Shown piece by piece: positions 6,055-60,466 of a DNA stretch of 64,000 nucleotides (position 1 is the first letter of the stretch; each line of letters starts with the position of its first letter). The stretch lies in assembly GCA_017654935.2 (NCBI GenBank), contig CM065686.1:31530387-31594386 (forward strand), written 5' to 3'. The translations under genes were made by a program, and so were the position numbers. The notes under the pieces were generated by a model, which ran no database searches, was not told where the DNA came from, and saw only the letters and a program-made list of their open reading frames with translations. This DNA is from Phymorhynchus buccinoides. Its lineage: Eukaryota; Mollusca; Gastropoda; Neogastropoda; Raphitomidae.

Positions 6055-9000
6055 TCCAATTCAGACCGTAAGGCCTAGTGCAAAGTGAGAGGAAAAATCC
6101 CCTGTACCCAGGTTTAAACTCGGGTTTACTTGTCTTGCCACGAAGCGAACGCGTTACCACTGTGCCACTCGACAAGTTTACGAATTGTTCCATAATGTCA
6201 TTGTATTTTGGTGGACAGATACCGGCGGCTTGCTCTGAAGTGGCACCCGGACAAGAACCCCAACAACAAAGACGAAGCGGATAAAAAGTTCAAAGAAATC
6301 TCAGAAGCCTATGATGTGCTGTCAGACAGTGAGTTACCCCGATTTTTTAATATTATATACATTATGATATAAGGTTACTTCATCTGAAAATGGGAGCAAT
6401 AGGTCAACTGTTTGGAAAGTCTTTTATTATTTTTAACTTCTTCTGAAGAAAGTAGTGGCTGTGAGTGATTTAAAAATTCTACTCCTTCAGTCCGTCACTA
6501 GGATCAGCGAAAAAACAAAATGTTTTTTTATATAAAAAAATTAAATTATTGAGTCACAAATAATGAGCAGACAATGTCACAAAATATAGAGCGGTGATTT
6601 CAGTACACTTTTTCTTGTTTCCATGGTAATGATTGTTGTGTTCGCGTTGTAGAACTTGCCTTGGATCTGAGGATTTGAACTCTTCTAGCGCCAAGTATTT
6701 TCTGTTCTTTGTTACCTTTTCAAGGGAACTAAAAATTATCACCTGCTTTACTATATGTGTTAAATGAACAGAAATGCACTGATAAGCTCTAAAAATAGAC
6801 AACCACATGGAAGATTTTTACTGGCGCCCACCTACTGGCAATGACGTATAATATATGTGACCCAGCACCACGAAAGGGACATTAACTACGATTAAGTCGC
6901 TGGGCTAGTTTCTCACAACAGGCTTGCAAAGTCAAAAATCAATTATTTTTTTTTATCGATCTGCATATTTTAGAGGGTTTCTGTTAATTGTTTTATTGAA
7001 AATTCGCTACGTTAAGTGCTTCACTGGTTTTGAAACCCAGTGCGTCAGATGGCAGTTTTGAACGTCAAAGACGCATGTATTATGTGCACAGAAGATGAGC
7101 ACTGTTATGGGTGCCTGTGAGAGCAAGATAAGGACCACATGATGCTGCAATGTTGAATTCTGTCTACAGAACAGAAGCGAGAGGTGTACGACATGCAGAC
7201 CTGCCTACTGCTATGATTTGGCCGTAGCAGCTACGAAAAATAAAGCTTGGCTACGGAGCTACGGCAACCTTAGCATTGCTACGGAGAAAACAAAATGCCG
7301 CCGCATTTTATTTTTGCTTATGCCGTTCCCGGTTTTGTCTGTTTCTAAGAGCAGACGCTGTGTCACGCGCGATAACCTAGTCACTTCCGTTTTTATCAGT
7401 GACTGCGCATGCGTTCTTATTACTTTCTCTGAAAAAAATGGCGGACTCCAGCAGCAGTAGCGATTCGGGAGATGTTTCAAACGAAAAAAACCGAACCCAA
7501 ACCAGAAAACGAAAATCATCTGGCACACCATCTTGTTCTAAGAAAAAACATCGGCCTGACGCACAAGTTTTCAAAATAGCTTACACGGAGGAGTGGCCTT
7601 GCATCGTCAGAAGTCGACTTGGTGCGAACCATGCTCACTGCAACCTCTGCCATGCAGACTTCGCTGTGAATCATGGCGGTAGAGACGACCGTCAACACGT
7701 TCAATCGGCGAAACATAAACAGTACGTTTCGGCTCAGGAAGAGAACAAATTGATTGCCGTCGTTTGTGGATGCTACGAAAAAATTTGCCATGCTACTGAA
7801 AATTGATGGCTGGGCTACTGATTGGGAAAATTCCAAGTAGGCAGGTCTGCGACATGTACGGCAAGAACGGGGTGCACGATGTTGCAATGTTGAATTCTGT
7901 CTACAGAACAGAAGCGAGAGGTGTACGACATGTACGGCAAGAACGGGGTGCACGACCACCCAGGGTTCCAGGAGGATGACTTTGCCGGTGGTGGTCAGCA
8001 CGGACACTTCCACTTCCAGTTCCGCAGCCCCGAGGAGATCTTCCGCGACTTCTTCGGCACCTCAGACCCCTTCTCCAAGATCTTCGGAGGTCAGGGTTGT
8101 GTTTGTTTCGTACCTAAGACTTTTGAGGATCAGGCTCAGATTTGTTCTTCCTTTCGGGGATAGCATAGTGTGATCAGACACCCCCTCCACTCTTTAAAAT
8201 AGCCTAATGAAGAAAACGTTCTTTTAGTTTCATGTACGTTTGTAATACCATGGAGCTCTTTTTCGATGGTGATTTTAAGAGAATAATGGACAGTGTGTGT
8301 GCAGATTAGTTTATTGTTGACGTTTAGTGCATTTGTCACTCGTTTGCATCTCTCAAACTTAGAGCCGGTTTTTTTGTCGTTGAAGATTCAATTAAAGAAA
8401 TCTGTAGATCCCAATTGTTTTTGTCTACATGGTGGATTATGGATACAAGTAGACAGTCTATTACTTTATGCCATTTCCATCATTGTCTGTAAGCTTTATG
8501 CTCGCAAAAGTGAGAGATTGCTTTGCTTTAAGAAAAATAATGCTGTCAGAGATTATTTTGCTTACAACAAGATTTAGAGTGATTGTTTAGACAAAGAACT
8601 GAATTTTCCTAACTGACATTATTGTTTCAGGAACCAGACTGCAGATTACCCTCTTGTGTTGATATTTTCCTTTGAATAGACATTGCATAAGCAGTATTAC
8701 CATTGTATTCAAAGAGAAGATGCTTTAATAGGCTTAACTCATTCGAGTCATTCTGGCCATATATGTCCGGAATTAATATTTAGCTGTCAATTTGATGCAT
8801 TTGCTTCAAGGGAAGTAAATCTGTGCACCCTGGTCACTTCTAAACTCGCTTCCCTCCCTTAGACCACAATTTTGCCTCTAACTTTGCTTTTGTAGTGGTT
8901 TGTTGTGGGGAAACCAATCGGTGTAGAGAGTTTTTCTATATAAAGTTTATATATAAAAAAGTCTGATCTACCACTTCCCTATTTTCCCTGAAGTAAAAAC

Positions 9001-12000
9001 CCATAATGTTCTTTCATTTCTCCTTTAGTTTATGTATGTTTTGTTTGTGTGTATGGCTGGAGTGATTTGTGATTTTTTTTTAATAATTCAAAATCGTTGC
9101 GATGCGAATAAGGTTGGTGATAGGTTTCAGGAAAAAGGTGGGATTGAACACAAAGTAGAAGACTTCATGGCTTCATTATACATTTTGGAGAGTAGGGGTG
9201 GTAAAACAAATACGATCCTGTTACTTTGTAATCAGTGGGTATATTGCCTGGTGTTATCTGTAGACGGTAGACTAATGTGAAATACAACTGAGTGACTGCT
9301 AACTGTTTAGGGATGAAAGTGTTAAAAGGAGAAAAAAACACCTTTAATTGTTCTGCAATAACAGTTCTATGATAAAGAGGAAGACTTTTTGTTCAGGAAT
9401 AAGTATGAGAATTAAATGTCGGAATAAGAAATGCTTCCACTGTTAGGGGGATAAAGGCATAAAGAAAGAAAAAAGCTTTTATGCATGTGATATTCATCAA
9501 TTATTTTATTTTATTTTGTTTATGAATTTTACTGACCAGAGTGTTGCTTGTCCTCAGGTGGGTTCCAGTCAGGAAACATGTTCGAACAATCTTTTACAGG
9601 CTTCCCTGGCAACGACGATTTCTTCGCCTCCTCCTTCTTCTCCAGCGACCCCTTTGCTAGCTCTGGGTGAGTCGCTAATGAGGGCTGCCGAATAGATAAC
9701 AGAGACGTTTACGGGGGTGATGAAGCTACCTACGTCCACGTTTAGTCCCTCTGAAGAGGAGATCAGTTTGCTGCTCGGGAACAGTGTTGAGGAATGCCTG
9801 CTGTGTGAGGTCCTCGTTTCTGACAGGAATGTTTGAACGGAGACGAGGCCTGTGCGCAGGCATTTCCCGATATTGTTCTGCTCTGGATATTTCAATTTTT
9901 AAAAAAAGAAAAGAATTGATCTAATTTGAAGAACAACAGTTCAAGTTGCTGTAATTTTATATTTTGAGGCAGTGTGTGTTGTTAGACGTAGACATTGTTC
10001 TCTTTTTCTCTCTCAACTGTCTTGCTCAAAATTTTAGGTGTATGAGTTTTTACAGAATTTTTGTCCAAGCGCTGAACAAACTGTGCAAAGAAAATGATTC
10101 TTTGTAGATTGTCTCCTCTTTCAGGGCTGAACGTGGATGTTGCAGTGTGATATCCTTACTGTTTGCAAGAAACTAATATTCTGTACTACTTTTGTGCACA
10201 GTTACCATGATGTTCAGCGTAAGCCTCTGTTAGTACCCTGTGCTGAATGCAGGCACTTTTGCTTGATTATGTTTGGGGTATTTCAAATGTTTAAGAATTT
10301 TTTTGGCTTTGAGTTGTATTCACCTCCCTCCCCCTCCCTTCTTTACTTCTGGATATAGAATCAAATCTTTAGTACTGAAGATGCCACATGAGTTTGACAA
10401 CTTTCTTTCAGGCTGCCTTTGCCCTGGAAAGAAACAAGAAGAAAGAAAGTTAAAAAAAAAAAATCAATTGACAGACTAAAACTAAAATTGAAAAAGATAC
10501 TTTCAAAATTAGAATTGTATTCAGCCGTGTCAAAATACCTTGTCATTGCTCCATGCGGAAATAATCTTGATCGTACAAGTTATCGATTTCAATCAGTAAC
10601 TGTGCACTAACAGTTGTTTAATTATTAACCAAACCTTAATTCATTTTCTCCTCAGACCTTTCATGCGTGCTTATAGTGGATGGAACTCCTCATTTTTCTA
10701 ACCCGTTACCCAGACTAATTTATTTCCGTATATCCCCAGATTGGTTTGTGGAAATCAAACAAACTGCTTTTACTGTGCCCACTGCATTTTTTGGTTTAAT
10801 GTCAGTTGGGGTGATAGTTGGGGGTTGGAATCTTTGAACGTTTTGCTTCTTTTTATTTCTGCACTGTTGCCCGTGATGGTGTTACTAACTGTTAGTATCT
10901 CTAGGAAGAATAATCATCAAGAGTATTTCTCTTATCGACTTTCAGAGTCTTTATGAAACAGTGTAAAAGCACAGCCGTGATGGTGTTACTAACTGTTAGT
11001 ATCTCTAGGAAGAATAATCATCAAGAGTATTTCTCTTATCGACTTTCAGAGTCTTTATGAAACAGTGTAAAAGCACAGCCAGCTGGACTGATTGAAATTT
11101 GGGGGCGACAAGGCGAATATGGAGTTGTTTTACGTCCTCTTGGTCTGAATCAGACACATATGGGACATTTGTAAATACAAATATGGTGGGAACAATACTG
11201 GAGGCAATACCCGGAGGCAGTACGAAACCAGTAAAGTCCTGATTTTTTAAAATTAATACAGATAGCTGTAGCGGTGACCACGCCTCGGTTAAACCTCATC
11301 GGCTATGGCACCGCCACAAGAGGTTTTTTTTAGAGTTGAAATTTGGGGGCAATATTTTTAATTCAAAGGGCTCTTTAAAATTAATTTGTCTTCTCAAAAC
11401 TGTAATAATGTTTGGCATATAAACGTTTTTTGTGGTCCTCTCAAGTCTGAAAGATTAGTGGCAAGACTTTGAAGGAGATGTTTTTAAAAATATCTTTTAA
11501 TGTAGTTGAATTGCAGTCCACATCAGTATATTGTTTTTTTCCTTTGGTTTGTAACAAAACTTGGTGCATTATTGCCAGGAAACTCTTTCTGTCCCTTTGT
11601 TTAGCTGTTCTTGTTCTCAATAACTACATACTTAGCCTTGTCCCTTTCTACCACACACACTCATAAACGCACAAAGGATTATGGATATTTTAGTTGTTTT
11701 CATCAAGTATTTGCACATGTTTGGCTCTGGGGAGAGCATTTGCAGTGGTATTGTATAGCAAGCATGTTTGAAAGGCTTAGCGCTATTATTTGCCATGCGT
11801 TTTTGGTTTGGACCAAATCCTGTTGCGGCATGTTACAGCACTTGTGTCTTAGAGTGGCTATTAACAATCTAAAGACGAAGAGGCTGAGCAGCTTGTAGGG
11901 TATGCTTTGGGGTTACTTATGCGTATTTGCCCACAGAGAACTCGTTTTGAGTTCTCCCTTTGTTTCCATCACAAGTAGAGTAGGAGTGCCGGTTTATTTA

Positions 12001-15000
12001 TTTATTTGATTGGTTGGTTTTTGCTAGAGTTATCATTATACCATTATCATTTGCTTGCAGTCAAGTATTTTGTGACCTTTTGTTTTTCATCTACTCTTTC
12101 AAAAGGAACAGGGTTGGTTTTTGGGGTGTGTTTTTTTACTTATCTGTTTCAACGTATTGGTTGATTGTCATCCACATTCTCCTCTTGAACATAATTATTT
12201 TGCTCTTGCAAAGGGAGATTATCACTTCATTCAGGACTCGGGGACAGGACAAAAGTAGAGTGTGTCTTCCTTTGATTACTGTATCCTGTTAGCAACTGAT
12301 TTCCATCTTCTAGAGATTCTTTCTTTCTTAATATTTCTTTTTTGTTTTCTTGTTCCGAAAGAGGAGCCTATCCTCGTTTATTAACATTGCTTGATGTTGG
12401 TACACATAAACTTGTGTGGTCAAATTGACATCCCAGATGCGATAACCATTTTCTGTCTCGTTTTGCGTTCGCACATTTGTTAATTCTGTTGCGAAAATGG
12501 ATGGAATTAATCCAATAACATTAATTGTTCGAAAAGCAAAGCTTTGGTTGTATTGAAAACGTAAGGTAAGGACAGGATAAAAGAACATGGAAGTTTTTCT
12601 TGATTTCTTGAATGTTTGACACCATTTTCAATGTTGTCACTGATATTTGTTTTTGTAAAATTTTACTTGTTTTGTCTCAGATCTAACATCGTGGCTTTGT
12701 CTAAATCAATGTTTGGAAATATACGCTTTATCAAAATTTGATTTCTAAGTTATTGATGGTTCAACCAAGGATCTGCTTCATTGGTATTAATTTTATTTGA
12801 CTACCGGTAGCTTCAAAATGGAGCACACTTTTACAATCACTTGTACAGGATTTTGACTAACTGTTTTTTTCTCATTGAAAGTGGACATAGTTTGGGTCCC
12901 AGAAAGTGACACCGAAAGGAACAAGCTTTGCTTTTTGTCAAGCTGGCTCTCTCGTTTTCCACTGACTGCATTGGTCTCTAAAAGACTTAGTCGCTGCATG
13001 TTCTCTCAAAACCATCAGGGCGAGCTTAACCATTTTTGAGGTCGTTATTGTGGGGTGGTGGGTGGGTGGGTGGTTCCAAGCATGCCGCTGATCTCTGCAT
13101 GCAGCTGTGAGCCGGTTCGCAGAGTGGTAGACGTAGGCAGAAAGCTTGGGTAGTCGTGGCGGCCAGAGAAAAGAAAAGAGCTAAAGGGGGGTGGTCAAGG
13201 GGAGAGGTGACGCTGTGAGCGCTGCTTGCAGTTTGTGGCCCCCTGCTCACCATAGGGCTCACCACCACCACCACCACCATCACCACCACCGGCGTCGCCG
13301 GGGGGACGGGGAACAGCCCGGGGAGGGAGGAGCCGCGGTTCACCCCAGGACCTACATGGCTCACCCTCTGTTGGCCCCCGGGGGCTTGTACCCCTTCATC
13401 CCTTCTTTCGACACTTACTTCCCTGTGGGGCACTTCGGAGGGTAAACCTAACAACGTTTTTTATTCCTTTCTGCCTCCACATTGTTTCCGCTTTTTCACT
13501 AACTCCTTACTGCGGCCTATGTTGTCTTTTTAGTTTCTTCTTTGGTTCGCTTTCTGTGGGCCGGTATGTCGCTGTTGTGATGTAATCGGAGCTCCAGATT
13601 TTTGTGATTTTTTTTTAACCTGCATCGCTGCTGAGAAGGAACTGATTTTGTAGGAGTACTAAGCGCTGTTGTGAAAAGTTTTTACTTTTACTCTGTGGCA
13701 TCTAATGGTTGAGATGGGTATTGCTTCTAATTGATGTGATGGGTTGGTGTCTGTGTTATGCTTGCCTGATAAGTTTGTGGGCAGGTGACCTTGGGCTTGG
13801 CATTGGGTTTTGCTGTTGTTTTGCTGAAAACAATTAATGGACCCAGACCCTCAAACTAAGGCTTAAGTATTAGATTTGATTTTGTAATGTGTACATTTTG
13901 TTTCCAAGTGAAAATTAACTACTGTATTACATTTTATAAAAAAAACAATTAAAGTGTATTGGCCTAGAATCCAAGAGATGGTAAATTTGCGTGTTGACAC
14001 AAATTACATAACCCTTTTTTTTTTTAGGGGTGGGGCACAGGGAGTGTGTTGCTTTTATTATTTTTTTTATTGAAAACAGTGCTGATTTTTGCATGACTAC
14101 ACCCTATTTTGTATAGAAATAAAACTTTTTTTGTTTGGTTTGTATTTATAATTCCGCAATTGTACTGCTTTTTTTTTTTGGGGGGGTGAAATGGGATGGG
14201 AATATATTTCCTAAATTGAAAGTCATTTGATTGGTATTTGAATGCGCCTTTTTTCTCTCCATTTTGGGGGGTTGTTGTTTAGGATTGTCGTCAAAGCATG
14301 TTTTACACTTCTTCATTTGTTGTAGGTTTAGAGTATGTTAAGAGCTTGCTAATGTAAAAAAATATATTTGAAAGCTAGAGCATGAAAACGCTAGATCAAC
14401 CAGCCATGCGGCAGCATTTTCGGGTCCAGTGACCTTGCAGGAACAAACAGATCAAACACCCCTGAAACTAAAGTCCGATCAAACAATCTACACCTGCACT
14501 TCACAGTACCACTGCGCCAGCCAGGATCTTGCACGGCAGCATTTTCGGGTCCAGTGACCTTGCAGGAACAAACAGATCAAACGCCCCTGAAACTAAAGTC
14601 CGATCAAACAATCTACACCTGCACTTCACAGTACCACTGCGCCAGCCAGGATCTTGCACGGCAGCATTTTCGGCTCCAGTGACCTTGCAGGAACAAACAG
14701 ATCAAACACCCCTGAAACTAAAGTCCGATCAAACAATCTACACCTGCACTTCACAGTACCACTGCGCCAGCGAGGATCTTGCACGGCAGCATTTTCGGCT
14801 CCAGTGACCTTGCAGGAACAAACAGATCAAACGCCCCTGAAACTAAAGTCCGATAAAACAATCTACACCTGCACTTCACAGTACCACTGCGCCAGCCAGG
14901 ATCTTGCACGGCAGCATTTTCGGCTCCAGTGACCTTGCAGGAACAAACAGATCAAACACCCCTGAAACTAAAGTCCGATAAAACAATCTACACCTGCACT

Positions 15001-18000
15001 TCACAGTACCACTGCGCCAGCCAGGATCTTGCACGGCAGCATTTTCGGCTCCAGTGACTTTGACCAATGACCTTCATGTTAAAACTTGGCCTAGATATCC
15101 TAAATTCCGGTACCCGCATGCAAAATTTGAGCCTCCTAGGTCCCTGTGTTCAAATGTTATTGTGTTAACATAGACAGATGATCACATAGTCAGGAAGAGA
15201 CTGACTGACTGAAAGCATTAACCAGCTTTTGCTTTGCGGCTGGTTAAAGAAAAAGTATAGGGCAATTTTTGGTGCTGGCTTTGCACCTTTGTGTTTCTTT
15301 TGTTGTGATCTTCTCATAGGTGTTAGATAAATAGGTAAATGTGTGAATACATAGGTATTTATACATAGGTATAATACATAGGTATTTATATCGCACTCAA
15401 CTCGGGCAAAGCTGCAAGTGCTTCACAATCACTAAGTCACAGTGGGCTGCACTATCCACTCAGAGTTTATACTACTGCTACATGTACCTATCGGATATTT
15501 TACCTCTTTCAGATAATAATCAAACACGCAACGAAGAAGCGAGACGCCGTGCATGCAGATCTAAATAATACTAACCACTTCACCGTAGCAAGAAAATCCT
15601 AATCATCCACAAATAATATAGTTCTCCAAGTTAGAAAGTCGTGAGCTATTTTGATCTTGCACAAGCGATACATTATGAAAGGAAACTGATTATTAATAGA
15701 AACATGAACCGTACTGGCCTTAGCTGCATAAGAAATAGCCTTTACAATAACATATTCTTCTTACACTGCAATCACTAGGCCATAGTTATTGTCATTTAGC
15801 CAATGACGAACTTTCAATGATGACATAATTTCAGTGAATGCGTAAGTTCACTAAGATGACGTTTTGGGATGTCCCGGTAAGGAGGCTCTATTTGCAGTGA
15901 CACTACCTTGAGTATCTGGTTGTTAGCCGCTGTTTTTATCATTTGCAATTTCACTAACAATTACTCTTCACAATGTAAAATGTTCATCAGAAACAACCTT
16001 TTGCATTTATCGAGTTAAGGCATAGGGTTAGGAGTATGTTTTGGCTTTTTGTTTTACTAAGCATCACTTGATGCAAATAAAGAAAATATGGTTTGAGTAC
16101 TGCAGATAGTCGCATGCGAGTGTACCTTGATGTGTGATAATGATAATGATATGTCAAGATATATAACTGTGATGTCAAGTTTCTAATAGCAACGGTGTAT
16201 TCTTGCACCTTTTCTCACGTGCGTTTACACTGAGCCTATGGGTTAATATACGCAAATGATATCTCTGGATATTGTTTTATATCCCACGCTTGGCAGGCCT
16301 CTTTGGCACTACTTGTACATCGGTAAATTGCTTTTTGTGTGGTGGTTGTTTTTTCTTCTCTTTTTTTCTCCCTGTCAGAATTTTTGTTTGTTGTGTCGGC
16401 ATAGGCTTTTGATTGCTTTTGTTGCCAAGTTGAAAAACTATGTTGCTAGCATGTAGCTCGCTGAGTTCTGGTGGCTGTGCTTGCTGACTCAGCAGACATT
16501 ATTTTCTTTTCGCTTATGACATTCATTGGAGGTTGTCGTCTGGAATGTCGGAAGGTGTGGGAAGCCACTGGACTTGTTACTCTCTTCTTGGCAGGAAGAA
16601 TAGTGTAAAATGAAGTCTGCAGTTCAATAACTGCAGTGGAGTACAATTAAGACGAAATTCAGGGGACAAACATTTTTGTGTGTGTTAACAGTATTTTGTG
16701 TTAAGCATTGAGTAATAATAAAGAGGGGTTTCAGATGTTTGTGTGTTAACCAATATTTAGTGTTATCCAGTTTTGTGTTCAGAGTAAGTACTCCACAGTT
16801 TATCTCCATGTGATATTAAGGGTGATCATTTCCTACATAAAGAGGGGTTTCAGATGTTTGTGTGTTAACCAATATTTAATGTTATCCAGTTTTGTGTTCA
16901 GAGTAAGTACTCCACTGTTTATCTCCATGTGATATTAAGGGTGATCATTTCCTACACTCAACTGTATCCTCATTCATGCCCTCCCCCCTCTCCTCCCCAT
17001 CCTCTTTCCTCCCAAACCTTCCAAGTCACCGGATTTGCCGCACTGCCTGCGTTGATGTGACGCTGCTCTTTGCTGAAACTCGTACTCAAAAATCAACCTA
17101 CTTGCTCGAGCACAATGCATCCACACACATTTGTAGTGAGAGGAAGAGGAAAGAATCCATATCTGCACTATGACTGGTTTGGACAAGCGAAAGGGAAAGA
17201 ACTCGTTAGCCCGACGACTTCTGTCGTTTTGTGCTTCTAGCATCAGGGTTCGTCAGTTTGCGACAGCTTTCTAAATTGGTGCCTGCCTGGCTTTTGCTGA
17301 TCACTAATTGGTTTGGAGCGAGTACAGTCTGCATATACGGAAGCGATCATTGTCACTGTGTGTGTAGCATGCCTTTGTAAAGCCTTTTCTTCTTCTTCGT
17401 TCGCTCAGACAGTTTCCTGTCACATGAGCGTAGATGCATCATGCTGCCGTTATGCGCCTAACTTAAGAAATAGCTAGGCCCAGCATGTCCGACTTCAGCA
17501 GAGTAAAGCCTTTTGAAAAGCCTAGCTGCGCATGGTAGTAAACAAGAGTAAATGTGTGAAAACTAAGGAGCTTGTTTGAAGCGTCCAGCTGCGCATGGTA
17601 GTAAACAAGAGTAAATGTGTGAAAACTAAGGAGCTTGTTTGAAGCGTCCAGCTGCGCATGGTAGTAAACAAGAGTAAATGTGTGAAAACTAAGGAGCTTG
17701 TTTGAAGCGTCCAGCTGTGCATGGTAGTAAACAAGAGTAAATGTGTGAAAACTAAGGAGCTTGTTTGAAGCGTCCAGCTGCGCATGGTAGTAAACAAGAG
17801 TAAATGTGTGAAAACTAAGGAGCTTGTTTGAAGCGTCCAGCTGTGCATGGTAGTAAACAAGAGTAAATGTGTGAAAACTAAGGAGCTTGTTTGAAGCGTC
17901 CAGCTGTGCATGGTAGTAAACAAGAGTAAATGTGTGAAAACTAAGGAGCTTGTTTGAAGCGTCCAGCTGTGCATGGTAGTAAACAAGAGTAAATGTGTGA

Positions 18001-21000
18001 AAACTAAGGAGCTTGTTTGAAGCGTCCAGCTGTGCATGGTAGTAAACAAGAGTAAATGTGTGAAAACTAAGGAGCTTGTTTGAAGCGTCCAGCTGCGCAT
18101 GGTAGTAAACAAGAGTAAATGTGTGAAAACTAAGGAGCTTGTTTGAAGCGTCCAGCTGTGCATGGTAGTAAACAAGAGTAAATGTGTGAAAACTAAGGAG
18201 CTTGTTTGAAGCGTCCAGCTGTGCATGGTAGTAAACAAGAGTAAATGTGTGAAAACTAAGGAGCTTGTTTGAAGCGTCCAGCTGTGCATGGTAGTAAACA
18301 AGAGTAAATGTGTGAAAACTAAGGAGCTTGTTTGAAGCGTCCAGCTGTGCATGGTAGTAAACAAGAGTAAATGTGTGAAAACTAAGGAGCTTGTTTGAAG
18401 CGTCCAGCTGTGCATGGTAGTAAACAAGAGTAAATGTGTGAAAACTAAGGAGCTTGTTTGAAGCGTCCAGCTGCGCATGGTAGTAAACAAGAGTAAATGT
18501 GTGAAAACTAAGGAGCTTGTTTGAAGCGTCCAGCTGCGCATGGTAGTAAACAAGAGTAAATGTGTGAAAACTAAGGAGCTTGTTTGAAGCGTCCAGCTGC
18601 GCATGGTAGTAAACAAGAGTAAATGTGTGAAAACTAAGGAGCTTGTTTGAAGCGTCCAGCTGCGCATGGTAGTAAACAAGAGTAAATGTGTGAAAACTAA
18701 GGAGCTTGTTTGAAGCGTCCAGCTGTGCATGGTAGTAAACAAGAGTAAATGTGTGAAAACTAAGGAGCTTGTTTGAAGCGTCCAGCTGTGCATGGTAGTA
18801 AACAAGAGTAAATGTGTGAAAACTAAGGAGCTTGTTTGAAGCGTCCAGCTGCGCATGGTAGTAAACAAGAGTAAATGTGTGAAAACTAAGGAGCTTGTTT
18901 GAAGCGTCCAGCTGTGCATGGTAGTAAACAAGAGTAAATGTGTGAAAACTAAGGAGCTTGTTTGAAGCGTCCAGCTGTGCATGGTAGTAAACAAGAGTAA
19001 ATGTGTGAAAACTAAGGAGCTTGTTTGAAGCGTCCAGCTGCGCATGGTAGTAAACAAGAGTAAATGTGTGAAAACTAAGGAGCTTGTTTGAAGCGTCCAG
19101 CTGTGCATGGTAGTAAACAAGAGTAAATGTGTGAAAACTAAGGAGCTTGTTTGAAGCGTCCAGCTGCGCATGGTAGTAAACAAGAGTAAATGTGTGAAAA
19201 CTAAGGAGCTTGTTTGCAGGGTCCAGCTGCGCATGGTAGTAAACAAGAGTAAATGTGTGAAAACTAAGGAGCTTGTTTGAAGCGTCCAGCTGTGCATGGT
19301 AGTAAACAAGAGTAAATGTGTGAAAACTAAGGAGCTTGTTTGAAGCGTCCAGCTGCGCATGGTAGTAAACAAGAGTAAATGTGTGAAAACTAAGGAGCTT
19401 GTTTGAAGCGTCCAGCTGCGCATGGTAGTAAACAAGAGTAAATGTGTGAAAACTAAGGAGCTTGTTTGAAGCGTCCAGCTGCGCATGGTAGTAAACAAGA
19501 GTAAATGTGTGAAAACTAAGGAGCTTGTTTGAAGCGTCCAGCTGTGCATGGTAGTAAACAAGAGTAAATGTGTGAAAACTAAGGAGCTTGTTTGAAGCGT
19601 CCAGCTGCGCATGGTAGTAAACAAGAGTAAATGTGTGAAAACTAAGGAGCTTGTTTGAAGCGTCCAGCTGCGCATGGTAGTAAACAAGAGTAAATGTGTG
19701 AAAACTAAGGAGCTTGTTTGAAGCGTCCAGCTGCGCATGGTAGTAAACAAGAGTAAATGTGTGAAAACTAAGGAGCTTGTTTGAAGCGTCCAGCTGCGCA
19801 TGGTAGTAAACAAGAGTAAATGTGTGAAAACTAAGGAGCTTGTTTGAAGCGTCCAGCTGCGCATGGTAGTAAACAAGAGTAAATGTGTGAAAACTAAGGA
19901 GCTTGTTTGCAGCGTCCAGCTGCGCATGGTAGTAAACAAGAGTAAATGTGTGAAAACTAAGGAGCTTGTTTGAAGCGTCCAGCTGCGCATGGTAGTAAAC
20001 AAGAGTAAATGTGTGAAAACTAAGGAGCTTGTTTGAAGCGTCCAGCTGCGCATGGTAGTAAACAAGAGTAAATGTGTGAAAACTAAGGAGCTTGTTTGAA
20101 GCGTCCAGCTGCGCATGGTAGTAAACAAGAGTAAATGTGTGAAAACTAAGGAGCTTGTTTGAAGCGTCCAGCTGCGCATGGTAGTAAACAAGAGTAAATG
20201 TGTGAAAACTAAGGAGCTTGTTTGAAGCGTCCAGCTGCGCATGGTAGTAAACAAGAGTAAATGTGTGAAAACTAAGGAGCTTGTTTGAAGCGTCCAGCTG
20301 TGCATGGTAGTAAACAAGAGTAAATGTGTGAAAACTAAGGAGCTTGTTTGAAGCGTCCAGCTGTGCATGGTAGTAAACAAGAGTAAATGTGTGAAAACTA
20401 AGGAGCTTGTTTGAAGCGTCCAGCTGTGCATGGTAGTAAACAAGAGTAAATGTGTGAAAACTAAGGAGCTTGTTTGAAGCGTCCAGCTGCGCATGGTAGT
20501 AAACAAGAGTAAATGTGTGAAAACTAAGGAGCTTGTTTGAAGCGTCCAGCTGTGCATGGTAGTAAACAAGAGTAAATGTGTGAAAACTAAGGAGCTTGTT
20601 TGAAGCGTCCAGCTGTGCATGGTAGTAAACAAGAGTAAATGTGTGAAAACTAAGGAGCTTGTTTGAAGCGTCCAGCTGTGCATGGTAGTAAACAAGAGTA
20701 AATGTGTGAAAACTAAGGAGCTTGTTTGAAGCGTCCAGCTGTGCATGGTAGTAAACAAGAGTAAATGTGTGAAAACTAAGGAGCTTGTTTGAAGCGTCCA
20801 GCTGCGCATGGTAGTAAACAAGAGTAAATGTGTGAAAACTAAGGAGCTTGTTTGAAGCGTCCAGCTGCGCATGGTAGTAAACAAGAGTAAATGTGTGAAA
20901 ACTAAGGAGCTTGTTTGAAGCGTCCAGCTGTGCATGGTAGTAAACAAGAGTAAATGTGTGAAAACTAAGGAGCTTGTTTGAAGCGTCCAGCTGTGCATGG

Positions 21001-22416
21001 TAGTAAACAAGAGTAAATGTGTGAAAACTAAGGAGCTTGTTTGAAGCGTCCAGCTGCGCATGGTAGTAAACAAGAGTAAATGTGTGAAAACTAAGGAGCT
21101 TGTTTGAAGCGTCCAGCTGTGCATGGTAGTAAACAAGAGTAAATGTGTGAAAACTAAGGAGCTTGTTTGAAGCGTCCAGCTGTGCATGGTAGTAAACAAG
21201 AGTAAATGTGTGAAAACTAAGGAGCTTGTTTGAAGCGTCCAGCTGTGCATGGTAGTAAACAAGAGTAAATGTGTGAAAACTAAGGAGCTTGTTTGAAGCG
21301 TCCAGCTGTGCATGGTAGTAAACAAGAGTAAATGTGTGAAAACTAAGGAGCTTGTTTGAAGCGTCCAGCTGTGCATGGTAGTAAACAAGAGTAAATGTGT
21401 GAAAACTAAGGAGCTTGTTTGCAGGGTTTTACAGCATCAACGCTTACTTTTGTTTAATGCATTACCATATTTTTTACTATAAGGCGCACCTTTTTATTTT
21501 AAGGCGCACCCTCCAAATTTTAAGCACAATTCAGATTTTGTTGTTATGCTTTCGGACTACATTATTCGTCATATTATAAGGCGCAGGGGTCTCAGTCTGG
21601 GGGAAAAAAGTATCGCCTTATAGACCGAAAAATACGGTACATAGAACGCTTGTTGCATTTTGAAGGATCATTACTTGTTTGGAATGGGGTTTTTTTTTCA
21701 TGGTTTAAAGATTAGAAGCCTTACACTTACCCCCACAATGTTTGTGAAGTGGTGACATTGCTGATAACACCTGTTCAAATTGAGACTAATTTAAAATATT
21801 AATCAGACTGAGACCCCTGCTGCCTTATATAATATGACAAATAATACATCAAACCTGTATTCTAAGACTTCCAAAAAGTCGGGGATAATCGGTCAAAGTG
21901 AAAGTTTTACGTCCTCTCAGCCGAAAATATGTTACATAATCGGTCTTAAATTGGAGGGGTCTAATAACAGAGGTTGGTTTTATACATAAATTATAGTAAG
22001 ATACATTACATCCATGCCAAAAAAAAAATCAGTCTTAAGCTAGAGGATGTCTTATGACAGAGGTTTGACTGTATGTTAGTAAGAAACTGCTATGCTAACA
22101 TCCCAATTTTGTGTGAAATTTGGAGGGTGCGCCTTATCCTGTGGGCGCAGCTTGTTGTCAGTATGCGTACGGTACGTCTCCAAACCTCAATGCAAACTTG
22201 TGCTGAGTGCCTGCATGCTGTGTTGTGTGCTGTGCTGTGCAGGACCTCCCAGTTTTCCAGCACCAGTTTCGGGGGGCCCACGGGGGGAGGCAACTTCCGC
22301 TCCACCTCCACCTCCACCAAGTACGTCAACGGCAAGAAGGTCGTCACCAAGAGGTCAGTGCGCGCCCCACCCCAAACAACACCCATTCCTCTCTCCCCCC
22401 CCCTCTCTCTCTCTCT

Positions 22417-22480
<64 letters not shown>

Positions 22481-24373
22481 GTTTCTATTGTTGTCTATGC
22501 TTAATTGTTTATTATTGTTTTGCTTTATTATGAATTTCATGCATAAGTAACCCTTGTATTGCCTCCATGTTATTACAGAGCTGCCAACCGTTACGTTCCG
22601 GCCGTATTTTGATACGGCGACCTTAAAAAAATACGGAAATACGGTCCGGTACAAATTAATACGGTGACAAACTTGCGAAAAATGTACGGCCTTCTATAGC
22701 TTATCTTCTTGTCAATCCGAGTAGGCTAATCGAGCCAACAGACCTGCCAGGCCTATAGCCGACCTAGAGTGGCTGTAACAGACTTTCAGCCGTTTGTGGC
22801 GTAACTTCTAGTGAATCCGAGTAGGCTAATCGAGTCGAGAGTCTAGCTTGGTCAATTTTATGGCTGAAACAGACATCGCCGTTGTTGTGGTAACTGCCTA
22901 GGTAATCGAGTCAAGAGTATGACTGAGGCTATTTTTAGTAACAACAATTGGAAAGCGTCATAAGAAAAGGACCAATCGCTGCTCTTTACTCAAGATTTCT
23001 TGTGATTTCATCCAATCAACGAAGGCGGCAGAAAAGCATGCGAAGTTTGTCCCTTTTCCGTCCATTGCGTTCTCGAAGCAGCAAGCAGTTAGCACTACCT
23101 AGGCCTGGTTCTTATTCTTCAAAGTTCGTCATCCTATTCAAAATGGACAACAGCGCGAAAAAGAGAAAAAATGCGGAGACTGCACCTTCGGGGAGTGGTG
23201 GAAAAAAACGGCAGCAGCACTTTTTGGCTTCATATACAACGGACTTTCCGTGCATCATCGCATCGAAAATGGGTCCGACGTACGCAAGGTGCACCGTCTG
23301 TGACATGGATTTTGTCATCAGTCACGGCGGCGCAAACGATGTTTCAACGCACACGAAGTCTACCAGACATAAAAAGAAAGGCGCTGCCATCGAACAGTCA
23401 TCAAAATTGACAAACTTTTTCACAACTGCGACTCCTCCAAGTGCAAAAGCGGACGAATCATCTTTGATTAGGGCCGAAACGTTGTTCGCGCACTTTTTGG
23501 TGGAGCACAACATTGCACTCAGTGCTGCTGATCACGCAGGAGAGCTGTTCAGAGAGATGTTCTCTGACAGCAAGATTGCCAAGGAATACGCCAGCGGTCG
23601 GACAAAAACGACAGAAATTGTGAGAGTCTGTGGCAAGGAAGTTTGCACACAACTTGCTGAGGACATGCGAAATGGCCCCTTTGTACTCGGCACTGACGGT
23701 AGCCAGGAAGGGGGAGAAAAATACTTCCCAATTGTGGTCACTGTTGAACGTGACTTCAAACATCACACTGAACTCCTCAGTATCCCTACTTGCGACGGCC
23801 CTGCAACTGGAGAAGCCATCTTTACACTCTTGGAGGATGAGCTAAAAGAATTCAACATTGCATGGTCCAACTGCCTCTCCCTTGTGGTGGACAACGCCAA
23901 TGTCATGACTGGCAGACACAAGGGGGTCATTGCGTTTGTTCGACGAAAGGTAGAGAAAGTCCACCTGGCTGGCTGTGTCTGCCACCTCCTACATCTGGCA
24001 GTGAAAAAGGGGATCAAGGCGTCCAGCAAGTTCGACCTTGATGAGACTCTGAGACAGCTGACCTGGTACTTTGACAAGAGCACAGGCAGGCAGCAAAGGT
24101 TCCAGGCCCTGCAGAAGGAGTGCCAAGTCCCTGACCACAAACTGCTTCAGCATGTGCCAACAAGGTGGCTGTCACTGGGTGCTGCACTTCGCCGAACGTT
24201 GGAGCAGTGGGAACCTCTCCAGCGCTTCTTCAAGGAGGAGTGCCAGACGAAACAGGATGCCTCCCAATGCTCGACTATAAGGATGCGCCTGAAAGACTTT
24301 TTCCGGCGCAGAACTCCGAAAGTCTATGTCTCTTTCTATGAGTCTGTCATTGAGGTGAGTTCAATTCATTTAT

Positions 24374-24440
<67 letters not shown>

Positions 24441-25809
24441 TGCGAAAAGACATTAAATTAAAGAACAGAGGGAGAGAGAGAGTGTGTCACACAGTGTTCT
24501 GATTATACTGGATGTAAATTGCACTCAAGACATGTTCTAAATCTAATAGATCTACATGATATTGTCTTTGCTGAATTGTACTTGCAATTTGAATAACTAA
24601 GCCCTGAGTCTTTCACACTCATGGCAGTTATGCATAAGCATGCACACACTCACACACACATGTATATATGTTATGCTGGGAGATCTTTAAATGTAACACT
24701 TTTTTCCAGATGTTCGAGAAGACCAACAAGCAGCTGCAGTCAGAAGCCAGCAGGATCCACCTGGTGAAAAGGGACTTGGAACGGCTGTTCCGGAGTCTCC
24801 TGACCTGCTTTGTTAAGCCAAGCGCCATGCATGGGGTCCTGTTGGAGGTTGATTTTGAGGCAGCCTACAACATCAAAGCTGACAAGGACCTCTTCATCGG
24901 CAGCAAAACAAAGCAGCTCTTGGAAGCAGGCATGGATTCAAGAGAAAAGGAGGCCTTCTTCCAGAATGTGAAGACCTACTACAGGAGTGCCTGCAAGTAC
25001 ATGGTGAACAGCATCAATCCTACCAAAGAGCCCTTGTGGAAACATGCGGAGGTGGCTGACATCAGGCTGAAAGTGGAGAAGATGCAGAGGAAAGAAGAAG
25101 GGCCTCGGTGGGATTCCCTGGACTACTTCCTTGAGAGGTTTCCATGCCTGCTGCCAACTGGAGCCTCAAAGAATGAAGTCCAGACTCAGTTCCAAGACTA
25201 CCAGGCTGAAACTGACCTTTCAGCTGTCTTGGAGGTGCCCACAGCAGCAGAGCAGTGGACAATGATGTCTACCAGGACTGACCACAACGGAGTGCTCATG
25301 TTTGACATGCTGGCAAAAGTGATGCTGAGGATTCTTCTCATCCCAGTGTCCAACTGTCCCTGTGAGAGGATCTTCTCTCTGGTGAGGAAGAATAAAACAG
25401 ACTTTAGGGGATCCATGGGCAGCAAGACCCTCAACGCTGTGCTCCAGATCAAGTCTAGAACCACCAAGTGCTACGAAACACCCCTTTCCAGTGACCTCTT
25501 GGTCAAGTGCAAGAAGGCCACAAAAAAGGCCAACTCAAAGTGAAAAGAAAAAAAAAGATCAGCAAGTTTGTATATAGTGTACATAAACTTAGTTCATGTG
25601 TTAGAAAAACAAGTGACAATGTTAAGAGTGTGTGTTGTATTGAACTTTGAGTAAACATTTTATAAAGTGTGCCTAACAAAAAACAATGATTGTTCAACAA
25701 GAAACTGATCCCCATTGTTTTATTTTGGAAGAAAGCTTGCATGCTATCAACTTGAAGGTAAGCCTTATATTTACTTTTTAAGTTTGACCTTCTTTGTGTG
25801 TGTGTTGTG

Positions 25810-25863
<54 letters not shown>

Positions 25864-27493
25864 TGTGTGTTGTCACTGTCTGTGACTGTAACGTGTTTGT
25901 GTGTATGTCTGTCTTAGTGTCAGTCTCAATCTGTGATTGTGTGTGTGTGTAAGAGAGAGAGAGTAATAGTATTACTATTAGCAGTAGTATTAAAGTATGT
26001 TATTGTCAAAGAAAAACTCTTTGTAATATAATCACTCATACAGTCAGTGATAGTTTTCTTAATCTATATTTGTTCAACTAAAGAAAAGCACACACAAAAT
26101 AACCGCGTAAAAAAAATACTGTATGAAAAATACTGTCGGATGTTGAAAAATACTGAGAAGAGTCATAGGTAGTACTGAGAAGAGATTTTGGGGTTGGCAG
26201 CTCTGTTATTAGGACCTGTATTTTGGTTGATGACATTAAACTTGTCCAGTGTCTGTGAAAATACATATGAATTATAGTTAGATTTATGGCGACCTGCTGC
26301 TATATGTTTAGGATGTTGGTAGAATGGTAAATACAGTCAGTAGTTGACTGTGCTGTGTGTGTTGATGCAGGGTGGTGGTAGAATGGTAAAGACAGGCAAT
26401 AGTTGACCGTGCTGTGTGTGTTGATGCAGGGTGGTGGTAGAATGGTAAAGACACAATAGTTGACCGTGCTGTGTGTGTTGATGCAGGGTGGTGGTAGAAT
26501 GATATAGACAGGCAATAGTTGACCGTGCTGTGTGTGTTGATGCAGGGTGGTAGAATGATAAAGACAGACAATAGTTGACCGTGCTGTGTGTGTTGATGCA
26601 GGGTGGTGGTAGAATGGTAAAGACAGTCAATAGTTGGCCGTGCTGTGTGTGTTGATGCAGGGTGGTGGTAGAATGGTAAAGACAGGCAATAGTTGACCGT
26701 GCTGTGTGTGTTGATGCAGGGTGGTGGTAGAATGGTAAAGACAGTCAATAGTTGACTGTGCTGTGTGTGTTGATGCAGGGTGGTGGTAGAATGATATAGA
26801 CAGGCAATAGTTGACCGTGCTGTGTGTGTTGATGCAGGGTGGTGGTAGAATGGTAAAGACAGTCAATAGTTGACCGTGCTGTGTGTGTTGATGCAGGGTG
26901 GTGGTAGAATGGTAAAGACAGTCAATAGTTGACCGTGCTGTGTGTGTTGATGCAGGGTGGTGGTAGAATGGTAAAGACAGTCAATAGTTGACCGTGCTGT
27001 GTGTGTTGATGCAGGGTGGTGGTAGAATGGTAAAGACAGACAATAGTTGACCGTGCTGTGTGTGTTGATGCAGGGTGGTGGTAGAATGGTAAAGACAGAC
27101 AATAGTTGACCGTGCTGTGTGTGTTGATGCAGGGTGGTGGTAGAATGGTAAAGACAGTCAATACTTGACCGTGCTGTATGTGTTAATGCAGGGTGGTTGA
27201 ATGGTAAAGACAGTCAATAGTTGACTGTGCTGTGTGTGTTGATGCAGGGTGGTGGTAGAATGGTAAAGACAGACAATAGTTGACCGTGCTGTGTGTGTTG
27301 ATGCAGGGTGGTGGTAGAATGATAAAGACAGGCAATTCATTGTCCGTGATGTGTGTGTTGATGCAGGGTGGTGGAGAACGGGCAGGAGACAGTGTTGGTG
27401 GAGGAGGACGGGGTGATCAAGTCGCACTGCGTGAACGGCGTGCAGCAGGCTCTGGACGACGGGGGACGCTCCCGACCAAGCATTCGCTCATAG
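5182..27493 (+). CDS. DNAJB6: DnaJ homolog subfamily B member 6-like co-chaperone, seven coding exons
   Basis: Exons: 5182-5264, 6219-6328, 7907-8089, 9558-9666, 13232-13441, 22243-22353, 27367-27493. Every junction is GT-AG and the phases agree, giving 310 residues. Class B Hsp40s of this type stimulate Hsp70 ATPase and suppress aggregation (polyQ and amyloid) in cytosol and nucleus. The J domain occupies about residues 8-75 with the HPD catalytic motif at 37-39 ([20 protein letters not shown]). A G/F-rich region follows ([36 protein letters not shown]). Exon 5 supplies a His-rich segment (ten His then four Arg, about 172-185) ending [13 protein letters not shown]. Exon 6 gives FSSTSFGG and [16 protein letters not shown], and exon 7 gives [16 protein letters not shown]. 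The order J, G/F, S/T and C-terminal VNGKK..TKR..VENGQE is diagnostic of DNAJB6/DNAJB2-type proteins. The start ATG is preceded by AACACC and matches the family N-terminus. Without exon 5 (210 nt, phase 2-2) the product would be 240 aa, the usual short-isoform size. Confidence 0.93.
5319..5536. mobile_element. hAT-like MITE, TIR CAGGGCTCCCA
   Basis: Exact 11-bp terminal inverted repeats (CAGGGCTCCCA / TGGGAGCCCTG) about 218 bp apart. The inside has repeated GAGGGTCC motifs in both orientations. TIRs starting CAGGG are common in hAT elements, but I see no clear 8-bp target duplication. Located in DNAJB6 intron 1. Confidence 0.6.
5790..6185 (-). mobile_element. tRNA-derived SINE in DNAJB6 intron 1
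   Basis: On the minus strand the head resembles a tRNA: box A-like GGCACAGTGGTAACG and box B-like GAGTTTAAACCTGGG. It is followed by a body and a 3' part (TCTCTGTGAAATTC on the plus strand) shared with the SINEs at 44520 and 58370. The insertion ends about 35 bp before exon 2. Confidence 0.65.
6219..6328 (+). CDS. DNAJB6: DNAJB6 coding exon 2 (HPD motif)
   Basis: Acceptor ...GTGGACAG at 6211-6218, donor gtgagt at 6329. Encodes [13 protein letters not shown] and [13 protein letters not shown], covering J-domain helices II (end) and III with the HPD loop. A minus-strand SINE ends only about 30 bp upstream of the acceptor. Confidence 0.93.
7143..7195 (+). pseudogene. Duplicated 3' splice site and 5' part of DNAJB6 exon 3, disrupted
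   Basis: A unit of about 76 bp (intron end, acceptor, and the first 49 nt of exon 3) occurs twice in tandem. Copy 1 is 7143-7195 plus 7857-7879; copy 2 is 7880-7955. Copy 1 is split by the 654-bp hAT derivative. The upstream acceptor (cag ending 7169) is intact. If used, translation runs through YDM into the transposon and meets TGA within a few codons, so it would act as a truncating exon. Confidence 0.85.
7196..7849 (+). mobile_element. Non-autonomous hAT derivative keeping a BED-type zinc finger
   Basis: Terminal inverted repeats CAGACCTGCCTAC (7196) and GTAGGCAGGTCTG (ends 7849). Direct repeat CGACATG on both sides (7189-7195, 7850-7856). Subterminal GCTACGG-type motifs recur near the ends. 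The only coding region is a zinc-finger frame related to the N-terminus of the transposase at 23143; the catalytic RNase H domain is gone. The insertion lies in the duplicated copy of exon 3. Confidence 0.85.
7438..7806 (+). CDS. BED-like zinc-finger protein encoded by hAT derivative (122 aa)
   Basis: Intact frame beginning [11 protein letters not shown], with a basic nuclear-type stretch ([15 protein letters not shown]). Next is [18 protein letters not shown] and the finger [14 protein letters not shown] with downstream [10 protein letters not shown]. The arrangement C-x2-C ... H-x4-H parallels [14 protein letters not shown] in the autonomous hAT at 23143. It stops (TGA 7804-7806) about 30 bp before the right TIR, so the element is little more than TIRs plus a DNA-binding domain. 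Expression is unknown. The start could also be 7399, but 7438 aligns with the related transposase. It may simply be a deletion derivative. Confidence 0.6.
   Translation: MADSSSSSDSGDVSNEKNRTQTRKRKSSGTPSCSKKKHRPDAQVFKIAYTEEWPCIVRSRLGANHAHCNLCHADFAVNHGGRDDRQHVQSAKHKQYVSAQEENKLIAVVCGCYEKICHATEN
7907..8089 (+). CDS. DNAJB6: DNAJB6 coding exon 3 (end of J domain, G/F region)
   Basis: Acceptor TGTCTACAG ending at 7906, donor gtcagg at 8090. Encodes [18 protein letters not shown], then a G/F-rich stretch. Its 5' part and acceptor are tandemly duplicated upstream; the upstream copy (7170-7195) is broken by an hAT insertion. Confidence 0.9.
9558..9666 (+). CDS. DNAJB6: DNAJB6 coding exon 4 (G/F region)
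   Basis: Acceptor TCCTCAG ending 9557, donor gtgagt at 9667. Encodes [20 protein letters not shown] and [16 protein letters not shown]. Ends in phase 2. Confidence 0.9.
10871..11078. repeat. 104-bp direct tandem duplication
   Basis: Two adjacent, nearly identical 104-bp copies (10871-10974, 10975-11078) starting CCGTGATGGTG, in DNAJB6 intron 4. The near identity suggests a recent event. Confidence 0.9.
11107..11335 (-). mobile_element. Short interspersed element with 15-bp target duplication
   Basis: Exact 15-bp direct repeats TTGAAATTTGGGGGC at 11092-11106 and 11336-11350 flank a 229-bp element. A second copy lies at about 60622-60820. On the minus strand it begins with a poly-A-like stretch and a self-complementary GGCGGT...ACCGCTAC segment holding a box A-like TAGCCGATGAGG. 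The long target duplication indicates retrotransposition. Orientation and a pol III origin are inferences. Confidence 0.7.
13051..13073 (+). promoter_or_regulatory. Intronic G-quadruplex motif upstream of exon 5
   Basis: Four runs of three or more G with short loops (GGGG, GGG, GGG, GGG within 23 nt) on the sense strand, about 160 nt before the exon 5 acceptor. Such motifs can affect choice of nearby exons; here the role is inference. Confidence 0.45.
13232..13441 (+). CDS. DNAJB6: DNAJB6 exon 5, in-frame 210-nt His-rich exon (possible cassette)
   Basis: Acceptor GCTGCTTGCAG ending 13231, donor gtaaac at 13442. Phase is 2 at both ends and the length is divisible by three, so skipping keeps frame. 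The exon is much more GC/CpG-rich than its introns. It encodes ten consecutive His and four Arg, a Gly/Glu stretch, then [18 protein letters not shown] and [11 protein letters not shown]. The last part, joined to FSSTSFGG of exon 6, resembles the S/T-rich segment of vertebrate DNAJB6 (family knowledge, not aligned here). This supports a genuine exon. Confidence 0.75.
14395..15248. mobile_element. Element with 125-bp tandem core and terminal hairpin (Helentron/HINE-like?)
   Basis: A left end with AACCAGCC is followed by five full and one partial 125-bp repeats (14409-15058). A unique tail then ends in a 9-bp perfect stem TTAACCAGC / GCTGGTTAA (15218-15247, 12-nt loop). A tandem core with a 3' hairpin and no coding sequence matches the structure of Helentron-associated elements and bivalve pearl-type elements. 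Family assignment is inference. Confidence 0.5.
14409..15058. repeat. 125-bp tandem repeat, 5.2 copies
   Basis: Units start CGGCAGCATTTTCGG at 14409, 14534, 14659, 14784, 14909 and 15034 (partial). They differ at a few positions (GGGTCC/GGCTCC, CGATCA/CGATAA, ACACCC/ACGCCC). Open frames across it are by-products of the repeat. Confidence 0.95.
15340..15440 (-). mobile_element. LINE-type 3' tail fragment
   Basis: TTTATATCGCACTCAA followed by AAGTGCTTCACAATC resembles the 3' terminal part of the LINE at 325-400 (TTTATATAGCGC ... GCGCTTTACAATC). Probably a very short 5'-truncated or tail-derived copy. Confidence 0.4.
16718..16955. repeat. 119-bp direct tandem duplication
   Basis: Two adjacent copies (16718-16836, 16837-16955) starting ATAAAGAGGGG, with only a couple of differences. 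In DNAJB6 intron 5. Confidence 0.9.
17395..17500. repeat. Dispersed repeat, second copy near 41325-41420
   Basis: The phrases TTTCCTGTCA..CATGAGCG, ATGC(A/G)TCATGCTGCCG and ATGTCCG occur in the same order in both places. No coding potential. It directly precedes the 63-bp array. Confidence 0.6.
17522..21425. repeat. 63-bp minisatellite, about 62 copies
   Basis: Homogeneous array of a 63-bp unit (CTGCGCATGGTAGTAAACAA ... GCTTGTTTGAAGCGTCCAG) in DNAJB6 intron 5. Because 63 is divisible by three and one minus-strand frame lacks stops, a 1288-codon open frame exists with a 21-residue period. I regard it as non-coding. Almost the only variation is C or T at one CpG (GCTGCGCATGG / GCTGTGCATGG), each in about half the units. 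Two internal units (near 19215 and 19910) and the right border have TTTGCAG in place of TTTGAAG. Confidence 0.97.
21465..21637. mobile_element. TA-flanked MITE, 'ATAAGGCGCACC' family
   Basis: TIRs CCATATTTTTTACTATAAGG and its partner reading CCTTATAGACCGAAAAATACGG, with TA on each side (21463-21464, 21638-21639). The same family is at 21805, 37688, 44438 and 60542. The TA target suggests Tc1/mariner-like mobilisation (inference). Confidence 0.75.
21805..22150. mobile_element. Truncated 'GGCGCACC' MITE with nested insertion
   Basis: GACTGAGACCCCTG ... CCTTATATAATATGAC on the left and AAATTTGGAGGGTGCGCCTT on the right match the 37688 copy. The two halves are separated by the element at 21847-22071. 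Confidence 0.65.
21847..22071. mobile_element. Tigger/pogo-like MITE nested in another MITE
   Basis: TA on both sides (21845-21846, 22072-22073). Inverted ends CAAACCTGTATTCTAAGAC and GTCTTATGACAGAGGTTTG resemble those of the 42386-42949 element. It interrupts the 21805-22150 MITE at a TA present in intact copies (AATAATACAGTAAG). Confidence 0.7.
22243..22353 (+). CDS. DNAJB6: DNAJB6 coding exon 6 (S/T-rich region)
   Basis: Acceptor GTGCTGTGCAG ending 22242, donor gtcagt at 22354. Encodes [30 protein letters not shown] and VVTKR, the most family-specific part of the protein. The donor is followed within about 30 nt by a C/CT-rich tract. Confidence 0.92.
22387..22479. repeat. C/CT microsatellite after exon 6 donor
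   Basis: C-run followed by (CT)n with a few interruptions, starting about 30 nt after the exon 6 donor. Confidence 0.95.
23143..25543 (+). CDS. hAT-superfamily transposase with BED-type finger, two exons
   Basis: Exon 1 23143-24354 (donor gtgagt) and exon 2 24710-25543 (acceptor TTTTTTCCAG), phase 0, 681 residues with no internal stop. The N-terminus is basic ([10 protein letters not shown]). A BED-like finger follows ([14 protein letters not shown] ... HTKSTRH). RNase H-like catalytic features are [17 protein letters not shown] (first acidic), [17 protein letters not shown] (second) and [12 protein letters not shown] (RW motif). An all-alpha insertion follows, and the C-terminal dimerisation block has [20 protein letters not shown]. 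This matches the hAT/ZNF862-like architecture. An upstream in-frame ATG at 22948 would add 65 residues, but 23143 aligns with the start of the short relative at 7438. The 355-bp intron holds a (CA)n(GA)n tract. Confidence 0.88.
25811..25860. repeat. (CT)n microsatellite in hAT 3' region
   Basis: About 50 bp of CT between the transposase stop and the right TIR. Confidence 0.95.
26311..27366. repeat. 59-bp minisatellite ending at the last DNAJB6 exon, about 18 copies
   Basis: The unit includes TGTGTGTGTTGATGCAG then GGTGGTGGTAGAATGG and TAAAGACAGTCAATAG. The last unit runs into the genuine acceptor TGTGTTGATGCAG and exon start GGTGGTGGAGAACGGGCAG, so every unit carries a copy of the 3' splice site plus a mutated copy of the first ~28 nt of the exon. 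Units differ by A/T/G changes in GACAG(T/G/A)CAATAG and by small deletions. Confidence 0.95.
27367..27493 (+). CDS. DNAJB6: DNAJB6 last coding exon (C-terminal domain and stop)
   Basis: Acceptor GTTGATGCAG ending 27366, stop TAG 27491-27493. Encodes [20 protein letters not shown] and [20 protein letters not shown]. The acceptor and first bases of this exon are the seed of the 59-bp minisatellite immediately upstream. Confidence 0.92.

Positions 27494-40061: not shown

Positions 40062-60466
<20,405 letters not shown>

What the first reader, a model, noticed from the sequence alone, without database searches (positions are those of the whole stretch)
26311..27400. Minisatellite made of ~18 copies of the last DNAJB6 splice acceptor plus exon start
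Each 59-bp unit contains TGTGTTGATGCAG, identical to the real acceptor, followed by GGTGGTGGTAGAATGGTAAAG, a mutated form of the exon start GGTGGTGGAGAACGGGCAG. So the array was seeded by duplication of an exon-intron boundary and expanded into the intron. Each unit is a decoy 3' splice site. The change GGGCAG to GGTAAAG also makes a donor-like G|GTAAAG 15 nt after the acceptor. Spliced units would add 15 nt (in frame, no stop), giving a ladder of isoforms at the junction between the TKR and VENGQE motifs.
Basis: partly seen in the sequence, partly recalled or inferred. Interest (0 to 1): 0.85.

Follow-up and report, generated by a model that had tools for sequence, protein, structure and literature searches.

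The report
Snail minisatellite of copied splice acceptors
A short stretch spanning the start of the last exon of a snail's DNAJB6 chaperone gene has been copied about 17 times into the neighbouring intron, leaving look-alike splice sites; such "mirage" repeats are known from amphioxus, where splicing is reported undisturbed, so this looks like a new example of a known kind.

Summary
Window 26310-27366, in the last intron of a snail DNAJB6 gene, holds 17 tandem decoy copies of the terminal 3' splice site (59-bp unit), ending at the real acceptor 27366|27367. The unit's exon part matches the real exon start in register (1-3 of about 20,000 null draws), and that exon encodes conserved residues, so the boundary was copied into the array. 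No other place was found in the 2.12-Gb genome. Exon 3 of the same gene has a two-copy duplication of the same type.

The splicing claim is only partly supported. The decoys scored are no weaker than the real acceptor, but a decoy used alone gives a short truncated tail (VVVEW* or variants), not a ladder; 15-nt cassettes would need 42-44-nt introns or skipped units. Such arrays are described as "mirages" in amphioxus, reported not to disturb splicing (PMC3087553, PMC3902484); human donor-side counterparts are ABCA7 and IFI6. Verdict: new member of a known kind, probably mostly silent, untested at RNA level.

The parts
26310..27366 (+). Mirage minisatellite: 17 decoy 3' splice-site units plus the real intron end; unit 59 bp (56-61)
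   Evidence: no other place found
26310..26370 (+). First (distal) unit, edge copy, 7 differences from the consensus
27307..27366 (+). Last (exon-proximal) unit ending in the real acceptor; 7 differences from the consensus; lacks TTGAC, has TTCAT at -28
27367..27493 (+). Coding part of the real last exon (VVENGQETV...RPSIRS stop); source of the exon part of the unit
22243..22353 (+). Penultimate exon; its donor 22353|22354 opens the intron that holds the array
22942..25543 (+). hAT-like transposase remnant in the same intron (two ORFs; only the second has a Pfam match, Dimer_Tnp_hAT)
7143..7195 (+). First part of a duplicated exon-3 acceptor boundary (27 nt of intron end + 26 nt of exon)
7196..7849 (+). 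654-bp transposon-like insert with terminal inverted repeats and a 7-bp target duplication CGACATG, inside the duplicated exon-3 boundary
7850..7879 (+). Rest of the duplicated exon-3 boundary copy (76-bp unit without insert and second target copy)
7907..8089 (+). Real exon 3

Best explanation
This is a 'mirage' minisatellite. A short tandem duplication spanning the last intron's 3' end (about 33 nt) and the first 26-28 nt of the last DNAJB6 exon was expanded and homogenised, probably by unequal exchange or slippage, leaving the edge copies diverged. It lies in the intron and is normally removed with it, because the terminal exon with its real acceptor is the one defined and used. Decoys are used at most occasionally, and then give a DNAJB6 cut off after TKR with the tail VVVEW, VVVE, VVE or VVEW. 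Shown here: anatomy, direction of copying, no second locus found, the tail after each decoy. Inferred: the expansion mechanism and the low use of decoys.
For: Interior units differ from the consensus at 0-5 positions, the two edge units at 7 each. In-register exon homology. Exon residues conserved in the 18 proteins aligned. No second locus found for unit or exon. A second boundary duplication at exon 3 of the same gene; 2 of the 7 exons tested have a local copy, both at the acceptor side. Minisatellites are common: 23 arrays, 4.65% of bases, in 20 evenly spaced 10-kb pieces of the same chromosome. Amphioxus Adh, globin and TnC mirages are reported not to disturb splicing.
Against: The decoys scored are no weaker than the real acceptor (a typical decoy differs at one of the last 20 intron bases, to its advantage), most have TTGAC where the real site has TTCAT, and they are transcribed first. 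The human donor-side ABCA7 array does yield retention of one unit, about 2%, and IFI6 uses repeat units as donors. No transcripts of this species were available.
Confidence: 0.72

Rival explanations
1. The decoys are used at an appreciable level, so the gene makes a truncated DNAJB6 isoform (TKR-VVVEW stop and variants) whose share depends on the array. The stop lies in the terminal exon, so the mRNA may escape nonsense-mediated decay.
For: 17 of 17 decoys keep AG and 16 of 17 have TTGAC at -24; the four scored are as strong as the real site or stronger. 17 of 17 give a stop within 4-6 residues.
Against: Amphioxus mirages are reported silent. No relative's protein ends at this junction (0 of 119 with the motif), though they may lack the array.
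Confidence: 0.2
2. One reading: units are spliced in as 15-nt in-frame cassettes between TKR and VVENGQE.
For: 13 of 17 units have an intact donor, and the one cassette read through (unit 26371, 15 nt) keeps the frame with no stop. Only 7 of 243 GTs elsewhere in the intron, and 151 of 4229 in the window outside the array, score as high (recalled weights).
Against: Donor weaker than four real donors of the gene; introns of 42-44 nt between neighbours, or skipped units (100-104 nt), needed; exon of only 15 nt; 4 of 17 donors lost.
Confidence: 0.03
3. The minisatellite came first and overran the exon boundary, or its likeness to the exon is chance.
For: A free local alignment of exon and unit is weak (37 of 2000 shuffles as high).
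Against: The in-register test gives about 1 in 10,000; the exon's residues are conserved in snails, bivalves, octopus and fish.
Confidence: 0.05

Closest known systems
Amphioxus 'mirage' minisatellites: Adh3, globins BflGb6 and BflGb9, TnC, PGBD5 (PMC3087553: section 16 and passages read; PMC3902484: one passage read; the original Adh report, Canestro 2002, seen only as a reference)
   Different: Here a gastropod and 17 decoys of 59 bp (BflGb6: 6 and 3 units of 150-160 bp in two haplotypes); allele variation and RNA not tested
ABCA7 intron-18 VNTR (PMC5954066, passages read)
   Same: Minisatellite whose unit carries the splice site of the neighbouring exon; one unit can be retained, causing a frameshift
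   Different: Donor side, 25-bp unit; unit retention did not change with array length there, whereas skipping of the next exon did
IFI6 (6-16) minisatellite with repeated splice donors (Turri 1995, seen only as cited in PMC4526556 and PMC3618361, passages)
   Same: Repeat units serve as alternative splice sites
   Different: Donor side, use reported; here acceptor side, use unknown
Potato RdRp intron gain by tandem duplication of an intron-exon structure (PMC4974935, passages incl. part of the abstract)
   Same: Duplication takes along branch site, pyrimidine tract and 3' splice site
   Different: There one duplication made a new intron and exon; here many copies and no evidence of a new intron
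Earthworm metallothionein genes with intronic minisatellites and a duplicated exon absent from the transcript (PMC12783039, passages read)
   Same: Another lophotrochozoan gene with intronic minisatellites and silent exon copies
   Different: The passages do not say that the repeat unit spans a splice site

Membership tests
Mirage minisatellite (amphioxus type) | Tandem repeats that span an exon-intron boundary of the host gene | tested here: met
Mirage minisatellite (amphioxus type) | Splice signals in many, not necessarily all, units | tested here: met
   AG in 17 of 17 decoys, donor GT in 13 of 17
Mirage minisatellite (amphioxus type) | Interior homogenised, cluster edges excluded | tested here: met
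   0-5 differences inside, 7 at each edge
Mirage minisatellite (amphioxus type) | Length instability between alleles | not testable with these tools
   one assembled copy only
Mirage minisatellite (amphioxus type) | Regular splicing not disturbed | not testable with these tools
   no transcripts of this species held; 0 of 119 relatives' proteins are cut off at the junction, but their arrays are unknown
Intron gain by tandem duplication | A new intron or exon produced by the duplication | tested here: inconclusive
   the frame allows a 15-nt exon but the signals are weak
ABCA7/IFI6 donor-type splice minisatellite | Repeat unit carries the splice donor of the upstream exon | tested here: not met
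   the array borders the acceptor of the downstream exon

The most novel reading that the evidence does not exclude
The array is a copy-number rheostat: more units means more decoy acceptors (and more UG-rich tracts), hence a larger share of a DNAJB6 isoform lacking the last 41 residues. Allele length would then set chaperone isoform ratios in wild snails. Not excluded, but in ABCA7 unit retention did not vary with array length, although exon skipping did.
Probability: 0.06. Interest if true: 0.72.

Novelty: new member of a known kind. Interest (0 to 1): 0.38.

Why it matters
It appears to carry mirage minisatellites, which in the papers I saw were described under that name in cephalochordates, into molluscs, with two examples in one gene at different stages (2 copies, and 17 decoys plus the real site). 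If RNA shows the decoys silent, it is a natural experiment on how the spliceosome picks one acceptor among near-identical ones; if they are used, it is a possibly length-variable switch in a conserved chaperone.

Tried and rejected
Chance similarity: rejected by the in-register test, although free alignment alone was not convincing. Array as a dispersed repeat: no other place found (the tool warns that its DNA search skips very common words). A paralogue or haplotig with the empty boundary: none found. An own-species protein: none among the 120 best listed of 7141 hits; the best-scoring is Nucella lapillus, 79% in the alignment (a short Babylonia isoform reaches 84%). The query was a hand-built model lacking at least the exon at 9557, with guessed exon junctions in its middle. 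Genome-wide base rate of boundary capture: not obtained. As a weak stand-in, 23 arrays per 200 kb on one chromosome would mean roughly 240,000 genome-wide; with an assumed few hundred thousand exon boundaries (recalled, no call), about one array in a hundred would touch one by chance, before selection. Splice scores use frequencies recalled from memory. The E5 donor was misplaced by me and is not used. Eleven of 295 AGs elsewhere in the intron score at least as high as the real acceptor, so these scores discriminate only modestly.
Full report
Observation. Window 26310-27378 is a 59-bp tandem array of 18.3 copies at 94% matches. Cutting at the acceptor gives 18 pieces, 17 ending in decoy acceptors (26370 to 27306) and the last in the real acceptor 27366|27367. 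TGTGTTGATGCAG is exact in 17 of 18, GGTGGTGGTAGAATGGTAAAG in 12 of 17.

Gene. tblastn of five DNAJB6-type proteins (four from named snails) places exons at about 5182-5265, 6219-6328, 7907-8089, 9557-9613 (four of the five queries), 22243-22353 and 27367-27493. A further, His-rich exon at about 13230-13444 was assigned by eye. The best-scoring protein is from Nucella lapillus, then Babylonia areolata, so I infer a caenogastropod; the genome has 2.12 Gb in 3962 contigs. The last exon encodes VVENGQETV..., and E, N, G, E and V of this stretch are invariant in the 18 proteins aligned, from snails to a fish.

Origin. The unit's exon part follows the real exon in register through GACAGT. The in-register score is reached by 1 of 20,000, 3 of 19,484 and 2 of 20,000 null draws; an unanchored alignment is much less telling (37 of 2000, and 736 of 2000 without the first 8 bases). 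Two of the differences (AAC/AAT, GGG/GGT) fall at synonymous third positions, as expected if the unit keeps an older version of the exon (my reading; few sites). Because the exon is constrained and old, copying ran from exon to array. Interior units differ from the consensus at 0-5 positions, the two edge units at 7 each. No other place was found for the unit or the last exon.

A second case in the same gene. The last 27 nt of the intron and first 49 nt of exon 3 are duplicated in tandem (76-bp unit; the 49 exon bases are identical once the insert is passed over). A 654-bp element with terminal inverted repeats and a 7-bp target duplication lies in the first copy. Of the 7 exons tested, these two have a local copy. 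Arrays are common in this genome: 23 (period 15-200, at least 3 copies) in 20 evenly spaced 10-kb pieces of the same chromosome, 4.65% of bases; the window itself has 7, covering 13,898 bases. Contact between arrays and exon boundaries is therefore to be expected now and then.

What the decoys could do. Of 17 decoys, 16 have TTGAC 24 nt upstream; the real site has TTCAT at -28 instead. With weights recalled from memory, the four decoys scored reach 2.29-2.52, the real site 1.20, the E2, E3 and E6 acceptors 1.59, 2.68 and 3.84; 11 of 295 other AGs of the intron also reach 1.20. Used alone, decoys give VVVEW* (12), VVVE* (3), VVE* (1) or VVEW* (1) after TKR: one short truncated tail with slight variants, not a ladder. 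The donor-like ATG|GTAAAG is present in 13 of 17 and scores 5.36, below the E1, E2, E3 and E6 donors (5.8-7.64). From it to the next acceptor is 42-44 nt, to the one after 100-104 nt (13 and 13 cases). So the 15-nt ladder is unlikely.

Relatives. Among the 120 proteins listed (of 7141 hits) the junction motif was found in 119, and none ends there: 103 match a strict ENG pattern, 16 a variant; the one without the motif also continues. Whether any of these species has the array is unknown: no eukaryotic relatives are held.

Known kind. Tandem repeats spanning exon-intron boundaries were named 'mirages' in amphioxus; one in globin BflGb6 duplicates the intron 3' end and exon start, shows concerted evolution inside and excluded edges, and has 6 and 3 units in two haplotypes. 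The authors say Adh3 data and their RT-PCR suggest no interference with regular splicing (PMC3087553, section 16). A later paper says the same of Adh and TnC and describes PGBD5 (PMC3902484, one passage). The human ABCA7 VNTR begins with the exon-18 donor; retention of one unit (about 2%, not length-dependent) and length-dependent exon-19 skipping are reported (PMC5954066, passages). The IFI6 array provides donors (cited in PMC4526556). A potato case took branch site, tract and acceptor by duplication (PMC4974935, passages). Earthworm metallothionein genes have intronic minisatellites and a duplicated exon not seen in the transcript (PMC12783039, passages). None of my ten answered paper searches listed a mollusc mirage, but none was aimed at molluscs, the listings are partial (20 of 243), and the library holds only part of the literature.

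Conclusion. By structure this is a mirage minisatellite in a snail DNAJB6 gene, most likely mostly silent; use of the decoys and length variation are untested.

Noticed in passing
7143-7955: Exon 3 of the same gene has a 76-bp tandem duplication of its acceptor boundary, the first copy split by a 654-bp transposon-like insert with a 7-bp target duplication.
   Followed up: yes
17524-21421: 63-bp minisatellite of 62 copies at 99% matches in the preceding intron; long open reading frames run through it on the minus strand.
   Followed up: no
45600-53211: 49/147-bp array of about 154 copies of the 49-bp unit with many insertions and deletions.
   Followed up: no
22942-25543: hAT-like transposase remnant in the intron that holds the array (Pfam match in the second ORF only).
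   Followed up: partly
14409-15062: 125-bp tandem repeat of 5 copies, 98% matches, inside the gene.
   Followed up: no
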